From the IMG/VR virus record IMGVR_UViG_3300037504_000192, positions 1 through 25,598 of that record: 25,598 nt of DNA; one strand, given 5' to 3'. The stretch is from a virus. This document shows positions 2,008 to 2,174 of this stretch, piece after piece (position 1 is the stretch's first letter; each line of letters starts with the position of its first letter). The notes below the pieces were generated by a model that was not told the DNA's origin, did no database searches, and was given only the letters and a program-made list of their open reading frames with translations. A program made the translations under genes and the position numbers.

Positions 2008-2174
2008 GGCAGGCGGGGCAGGGCGGGGCAAGGCGAGGCCGGGTCTGGCAAGGCATGGCAGGCGTGGCAAGGCGTGGCTAGCCCTGGTAGGGCAACGCAT
2101 GGCGAGGCAGGCGAGGCGGGGCGAGGCAGGGCGCGGCAAGGCGCGGCCGGGCGAGGCACGGCAAGGCAAGGCTT
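2008..2174 (+). repeat. GGCNN pentamer array 1 (about 34 units)
   Basis: About 34 consecutive units begin with GGC (four begin GGT, GCC or CGC) and are followed by two variable bases. The period is 5, except for three 4-nt GGCA units at 2008, 2057 and 2106. The NN pair is mostly AA, GA, GT, AG, GG or GC with no fixed order, so only the GGC register is conserved. The array begins about 20 nt after the predicted transcription start and ends 17 nt before the GGAGGT ribosome-binding site of the 201-aa gene. Blocks at 2052-2073 and 2106-2129 recur in array 2 with one mismatch each. The frame is open through the array because GGCNN rarely makes stops, but the peptide is just Arg/Gly/Ala-rich and there is no start signal. 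The repeats are degenerate and have no spacers, so this is not CRISPR. Confidence 0.95.

What the first reader, a model, noticed from the sequence alone, without database searches (positions are those of the whole stretch)
2008..2174. GGCNN pentamer array in the 5' leader of the rightward operon
About 34 units keep GGC in a 5-nt register while the next two bases vary freely. This is not a slipped-strand microsatellite, where whole units would be identical; the register itself appears conserved. It begins just after a predicted extended -10 promoter and ends just before a strong RBS, so it should be transcribed. A GG every 5 nt could form two-layer G-quadruplexes with 3-nt loops, or act as evenly spaced triplets for a ring-shaped RNA-binding protein, by analogy with TRAP and its (G/U)AG-NN repeats. 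Read antisense it is C-rich (NNGCC) and might load Rho on leftward read-through. I know no described phage element of this form.
Basis: partly seen in the sequence, partly recalled or inferred. Interest (0 to 1): 0.85.

Follow-up and report, generated by a model that had tools for sequence, protein, structure and literature searches.

The report
VIPR guide-RNA array of a phage
The repeating GGCNN stretch is a set of guide RNAs of VIPR, a newly described phage weapon related to CRISPR, in which the two free bases of every five-base unit spell out the DNA of a rival; this is a new member of that known system.

Summary
Window 2008-2174 holds about 31 five-base GGC-NN units plus three 4-base GGCA register breaks. 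A second, unreported array lies at 3527-3697 in the same operon.

The gene right after the array (2203-2808) is a Vipr protein. Its family profile hits the solved SUSP1 Vipr at E=5e-39, and its AlphaFold model has the Csm3/Cas7 RAMP fold. The finding is therefore a VIPR (Viral Interference Programmable Repeat) locus, described in one 2026 preprint (PMC13142463). There, vrRNAs of GGY/NN repeats guide Vipr to double-stranded DNA through the NN pairs with a 1-nt skip.

Array and gene go together both ways: 83 of 120 contigs found by array carry vipr, and 41 of 42 loci found by protein carry arrays, on the same strand. Among close relatives GGC is fixed while NN varies.

I recovered the 1-nt-skip code independently. 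Guides of VIPR loci in Mycobacterium and Clostridia match vipr genes of other elements over 10-11 consecutive units, the skipped base falling on the codon wobble position.

No target was found for the window's own five guides. G-quadruplex, TRAP and Rho readings are not needed. New member of a known kind.

The parts
1953..1982 (+). extended -10 promoter-like site driving the leader array and vipr
   Evidence: TTGGTA-18-TATAAT with TG, 10 of 12; consensus match only
2008..2174 (+). leader vrRNA array 1: three guide modules in head-to-tail order, each preceded by a 4-nt GGCA
   Evidence: sequence; 42 matches in the window against 0.5 in shuffles; GGCA register breaks
2012..2056 (+). guide A, 9 units, NN = GG AG GG AA GA CG CT AA AT
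   Evidence: parse of sequence
2061..2105 (+). guide B, 9 units, NN = GT AA GT TA CT AG AA AT GA (two units with degenerate GGY)
   Evidence: parse of sequence
2110..2174 (+). guide C, 13 units, NN = GA GG GA AG GC AA GC CG GA AC AA AA TT, followed by a leader tail conserved in six relatives (GGATNTTATTCA...)
2203..2808 (+). vipr gene, 201 aa RAMP protein (phrog_4652)
   Evidence: profile of 82 homologues hits PDB 36pp SUSP1 Vipr E=5e-39; AF2 pLDDT 95; Csm3 fold Z 12.9
2808..3527 (+). second gene, candidate vap (accessory) protein; same family follows vipr in about 40 loci
   Evidence: no relation to the Felixounavirus gene downstream of vipr; no fold match
3536..3605 (+). guide D, 14 units, NN = GC AA TG AC CT AG GT TA AT AA TA GA GA AA, preceded by GGCAT and GGCA (3527-3535)
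3606..3638 (+). sequence-conserved 3' tail of guide D (GGGAACCTGGGCACGTTCGCAAACTGCCCACAC)
   Evidence: same tail in relatives L133, L134 and in L132; predicted hairpin not better than shuffles
3643..3692 (+). guide E, 10 units, NN = GA GG AA AG TG AC GA TT AA GT, flanked by GGCA on both sides

Best explanation
The array is a VIPR guide-RNA (vrRNA) array. It is transcribed from the promoter at about 1953-1982 together with vipr, and a second array follows the next gene. Vipr, a small Cas7-like RAMP protein, coats the RNA with (inferred) one subunit per 5-nt unit, holding GGC and leaving the two N bases free. The successive NN pairs read double-stranded DNA by the 1-nt-skip rule (target N1N2-x-N3N4-x...). 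Binding represses genes of a rival phage or satellite. The window encodes five guides (A to E), mostly separated by a 4-nt GGCA register break that probably marks guide boundaries. Shown here: the array, its repeat grammar, the Vipr family and fold, the two-way association, the hypervariable NN, and the skip code in other members. Taken from PMC13142463: RNP formation, dsDNA binding and repression. Inferred: that this phage's own guides work so, and what they target.
For: Vipr identity: profile hit to PDB 36pp SUSP1 Vipr E=5e-39, profile-profile 99.9% with an E. coli Felixounavirus Vipr, Csm3/Cas7 fold. Array to gene: 83 of 120 GGCNN contigs carry vipr against 10 of 117 with the reversed pattern, arrays on the vipr coding strand in 81 of 83. 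Gene to array: 41 of 42 protein-selected loci have the array, same strand. Among the window and five relatives with 87-91% identical Vipr, pairwise identity by unit position is 0.94, 0.94, 1.00 for G, G, Y and 0.39, 0.47 for N, N. Code: at skip 1 only, guides of L322, L324, L318 match vipr genes of other elements in frame with the wobble base skipped. Literature: PMC13142463.
Against: No target of the window's five guides was found in IMG/VR cores or in the fetched loci. Only one guide (D) has a conserved tail, and its fold is no better than shuffles. Gene 2 is unrelated to the gene downstream of vipr in a SUSP1-like phage. No RNA data exist for this uncultivated phage.
Confidence: 0.92

Rival explanations
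1. The array is a cis-acting leader element (attenuator or autoregulatory site) that Vipr binds to control its own operon, without guiding anything.
For: Array 1 sits between promoter and vipr RBS and would be in the leader.
Against: Arrays lie upstream, between genes or downstream in different loci (nearest seven-unit run upstream in 22, downstream in 59). NN pairs are hypervariable, and in relatives some spell out foreign vipr genes.
Confidence: 0.04
2. G-quadruplex or C-rich Rho-loading element in which only base composition matters.
For: GG every 5 nt on one strand.
Against: Does not explain the adjacent RAMP gene and array in 41 of 42 relatives, the fixed 5-nt register with GGCA breaks, or NN strings matching foreign genes at one specific skip.
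Confidence: 0.01
3. TRAP-like system: a ring protein binds evenly spaced triplets to control expression.
For: Spaced triplets and a multimeric RNA-binding partner are shared in outline.
Against: The triplet is GGY, not (G/U)AG; the neighbour protein is a Cas7-like RAMP.
Confidence: 0.01
4. Tandem duplication or low-complexity DNA without function.
For: Repeat finders report the arrays as imperfect tandem repeats.
Against: Units are not copies of each other; the register and third base are kept while NN pairs diverge far faster than the neighbouring gene; conserved association across many bacterial phyla.
Confidence: 0.01

Closest known systems
VIPR (Viral Interference Programmable Repeat), PMC13142463, bioRxiv 10.64898/2026.04.26.720920
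   Same: Vipr homologue, GGY/NN pentamer arrays on the vipr strand on both sides of the protein genes, 9-14 units per guide, second small gene after vipr, phage genome.
   Different: Guides stand head to tail with a 4-nt GGCA break and mostly without the long tail seen in a Felixounavirus locus. The second gene is not related to the one after vipr in that SUSP1-like phage. Whether this equals one of the paper's seven types (for example its 'staggered arrays') could not be checked, as its supplement was not available.
Class 1 CRISPR-Cas (Csm3/Cas7)
   Same: RAMP fold of the protein; RNA-guided binding by a multimer.
   Different: No identical repeats with spacers and no other cas genes seen; noncontiguous reading of two bases in three instead of near-contiguous pairing.
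TRAP and (G/U)AG-NN repeats
   Same: Evenly spaced triplets with free NN, bound by a multimer (from general knowledge of TRAP).
   Different: Different triplet, different protein fold; NN is spacer in TRAP but carries the information here.

Membership tests
VIPR | Vipr protein, a minimal RAMP homologue | tested here: met
   Profile to 36pp SUSP1 Vipr E=5e-39, single protein E=5.7e-5, Cas7/Csm3 fold Z 12.9
VIPR | vrRNA of about 9-16 GGY/NN units flanking vipr, same strand | tested here: met
   Modules of 9, 9, 13, 14, 10 units on both sides of the two genes
VIPR | GGY conserved, NN hypervariable between relatives | tested here: met
   0.94/0.94/1.00 against 0.39/0.47 pairwise identity
VIPR | vap accessory gene | tested here: inconclusive
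   Gene 2 family follows vipr in about 40 loci but has no relation to the gene after vipr in a Felixounavirus and no fold match
VIPR | invariant structured 3' tail on vrRNAs | tested here: inconclusive
   Sequence-conserved 33-nt tail after guide D only; predicted fold not beyond shuffles
VIPR | 1-nt-skip recognition of DNA | tested here: inconclusive
   Found for other members; no target found for the window's own guides
VIPR | vrRNA expressed, bound to Vipr, represses target | not testable with these tools
   Needs experiment; shown for SUSP1 in PMC13142463
CRISPR-Cas | identical repeats separated by unique spacers, with further cas genes | tested here: not met
   Units are 5 nt with 2 variable bases; no cas family among the tested genes in Pfam, NCBIfam or PADLOC
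TRAP regulation | (G/U)AG triplets and a TRAP protein | tested here: not met
   Triplet is GGC/GGT; the array-linked protein is a RAMP

The most novel reading that the evidence does not exclude
The array belongs to a VIPR architecture in which one long transcript is divided into guides by a 4-nt GGCA register slip instead of by individual tails, and such arrays take part in direct VIPR-against-VIPR warfare: guides spell wobble-blind codon strings of the conserved parts of rivals' vipr genes while their own vipr gene escapes.
Probability: 0.4. Interest if true: 0.68.

Novelty: new member of a known kind. Interest (0 to 1): 0.55.

Why it matters
It settles an odd-looking repeat as part of a just-discovered RNA-guided system and shows the system in phages and prophages of many phyla. 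Using other sequences than the original authors' main ones, it recovers their reading rule in loci of Mycobacterium and Clostridia. It adds a testable grammar point (GGCA as guide boundary) and a reciprocal attack on vipr genes. Reading guides lets one predict who fights whom among uncultivated phages.

Tried and rejected
Targets of window guides: 8-unit cores of D, C, E and B and all 9 units of A were scanned in IMG/VR. 21, 4, 12, 16 and 0 contigs matched, about the number expected by chance for such cores, and the D and C hits do not extend. The 9-unit scan of A may have been too strict, since the last unit of a module may not pair. Guide E matches a recurring gene of large phages at 20 of 22 positions, but given how the hits were selected this is not significant. 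The local search of guides A to E at skips 0 to 2 was near null level, and skip 3 only finds the array itself. A Mycobacterium guide searched in 198 genomes of its genus gave nothing. The reversed-pattern control still caught 10 vipr loci, probably true arrays read in another phase; not checked one by one. Tail hairpin: not beyond shuffles. Rfam: nothing in the window. PADLOC: only a weak hit of the third gene to a regulator. Gene-2 fold: no match. The first all-guide search timed out, and a slower alignment covered only 93 of 533 runs. Close relatives in genome contigs by the single window protein: none, so the host stays unknown. One 19-point skip-1 hit outside vipr (L081 to L057) reads through a stop codon and is probably chance. 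In some searches a few protein alignment rows were loaded as if they were loci; they hold almost no DNA-like text and should not affect the counts; the vipr-only test was run without them.

Full report
WHAT IS THERE. Window 2008-2174 (+) reads GGCA, nine 5-nt units, GGCA, nine units, GGCA, thirteen units (parsed). Almost every unit is GGC or GGT plus two free bases; GCCCT and CGCAT break the triplet but keep the register. The pattern (GGCNN)x4 with one mismatch allowed occurs 42 times in the window, always on the + strand, against a mean of 0.5 and a maximum of 2 in shuffles. An extended -10 promoter-like site lies at 1953-1982, and AGGAGG precedes the ATG at 2203. G000 is a 25.6-kb virus record with portal, capsid and tail genes on the other strand.

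WHAT THE NEIGHBOUR GENE IS. The protein at 2203-2808 belongs to phrog_4652, a PHROG of unknown function. Iterated search over fetched contigs, most of them fetched only for the GGCNN pattern, found homologues in most of them. A profile of 82 homologues (A1) has one strong hit among solved structures, PDB 36pp 'SUSP1 Vipr protein', at E=5e-39. Profile-profile comparison with the Vipr of an E. coli Felixounavirus gives 99.9% probability. The AlphaFold model (pLDDT 95) has the fold of Csm3/Cas7 (Foldseek E 2.4e-7; VIA Z 12.9 over 160 residues, rmsd 3.1).

WHAT IS PUBLISHED. PMC13142463 (preprint of April 2026) describes VIPR: a phage-encoded RAMP, Vipr, with vrRNAs of 9-16 YNNGG repeats. The NN bases pair with double-stranded DNA with one skipped target base between pairs; binding represses transcription, and natural targets are satellites, prophages and other VIPR systems. 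The window shows the same anatomy.

ASSOCIATION IN BOTH DIRECTIONS. Of 120 IMG/VR loci fetched by seven GGCNN units, 83 carry vipr, against 10 of 117 fetched by the reversed pattern; where vipr is present, arrays lie on its coding strand in 81 of 83. A caveat is that the profile was iterated on the test loci, not on the controls. In reverse, 42 loci were fetched by protein alone: 8 viral, 6 named phages of Gordonia, Mycobacterium, Pseudomonas and a cyanobacterium, and 28 bacterial genomes from Sphingomonas to Clostridia, Streptomyces and Spirochaetia. Of these, 41 have dense GGY arrays on the coding strand within about 2 kb, far above shuffles (examples read).

CONSERVED FRAME, FREE LETTERS. 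Among the window and five relatives whose Vipr is 87-91% identical to it, the six units before the vipr leader have pairwise identity 0.94, 0.94, 1.00 at G, G, Y and 0.39, 0.47 at the two N positions, while the flanking leader tail stays conserved. Unit number and guide number differ too. This is what a guide store predicts, and not what a protein-binding spacer or a microsatellite predicts.

INDEPENDENT TEST OF THE CODE. I took all array runs in the fetched loci and asked whether their NN strings occur in other fetched DNA with 0, 1, 2 or 3 skipped bases, against order-permuted guides. Only at skip 1 do the best real matches (21, 20, 19, 19, 19) exceed all permuted ones at that skip (17), and those five all lie inside vipr genes, in frame, with the skipped base at the codon wobble position (one further 19-point hit elsewhere is probably chance). 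A Mycobacterium szulgai prophage guide spells GEGDDQLVPIV of the vipr in L106 (11 consecutive units) and the same place in phages Saal and Brocalys (10 units). A Clostridiaceae guide spells the first ten codons of vipr in L320 (20 of 20) and L318 (19 of 20). In a vipr-only search a guide of L318 spells GMGTADLRYR of the vipr in L324, so L318 and L324 point at each other; L320 and L300 also have weaker-scoring guides against this gene. The targeting guides differ from their own vipr genes at 8 of 24 (L322) and 7 of 20 (L324) positions. These are loci of other elements, not of the window, but they show that the window's family reads by this rule.

A GRAMMAR POINT. Register jumps of 4 nt between blocks of units are common (186 against 10 jumps of 6 nt), and 168 of the 186 are GGCA followed by GGC or GGT; successive breaks are most often 39-64 nt apart. 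In L324 the match to its target begins exactly at the first unit after GGCA and ends one unit before the next GGCA, the last unit being a constant GGTAT. GGCA is therefore probably the guide boundary. Off-consensus units (GTTCA, TGCCA, GGGAT) still match the target with their NN, so the window's GCCCT and CGCAT probably count as well. The published 'staggered arrays' may be the same thing; I could not see the supplement.

THE WINDOW'S OWN TARGETS. Guides A to E: no convincing target in IMG/VR or in the fetched loci.

VERDICT. A new member of a known, very recently described system. The specific mechanism for this phage is inferred from family membership; the steps shown here are anatomy, family, fold, association, hypervariability and, in relatives, the reading code.

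Noticed in passing
L322 4815-4875; L106 7826; L140 and L144 6255: A VIPR guide of a Mycobacterium szulgai prophage matches the vipr genes of mycobacteriophages Saal and Brocalys and of a viral contig, in frame with the wobble base skipped.
   Followed up: yes
L324 6244, L318 3024, L320 5703, L300 6080: Guides of Lachnospiraceae/Clostridiaceae and Sphingomonas elements spell conserved vipr codons of other elements; L318 and L324 point at each other.
   Followed up: partly
L011, L070, L086, L046: Long GGCNN arrays inside the contig without a detectable vipr nearby; either divergent Vipr or arrays detached from it. L034, L085, L105 and L115 have the array near a contig or locus end.
   Followed up: partly
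L140 5785-6531 (Mycobacterium phage Saal gp51): The annotated start of the vipr gene lies inside the guide array; the true start is probably the ATG at 5932. Such records may mis-call this gene's start.
   Followed up: no
window 1313-1352 and 1580-1622: A direct repeat of about 40 bases, each copy coding the start of a leftward protein (HGGRRPGSGPKPK).
   Followed up: no
window 3725-4390: Third gene of the operon: hydrophobic N-terminal part with a Fis-type helix-turn-helix at the end, and a weak PADLOC hit to an RtcR-like regulator.
   Followed up: no
L131, L133, L134, L135, first guide of the leader array: One guide (GT TA AT TA .. GA GT AA) is kept nearly unchanged in four relatives while all others differ; its target is perhaps a lasting rival. 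No match found in the fetched loci.
   Followed up: partly
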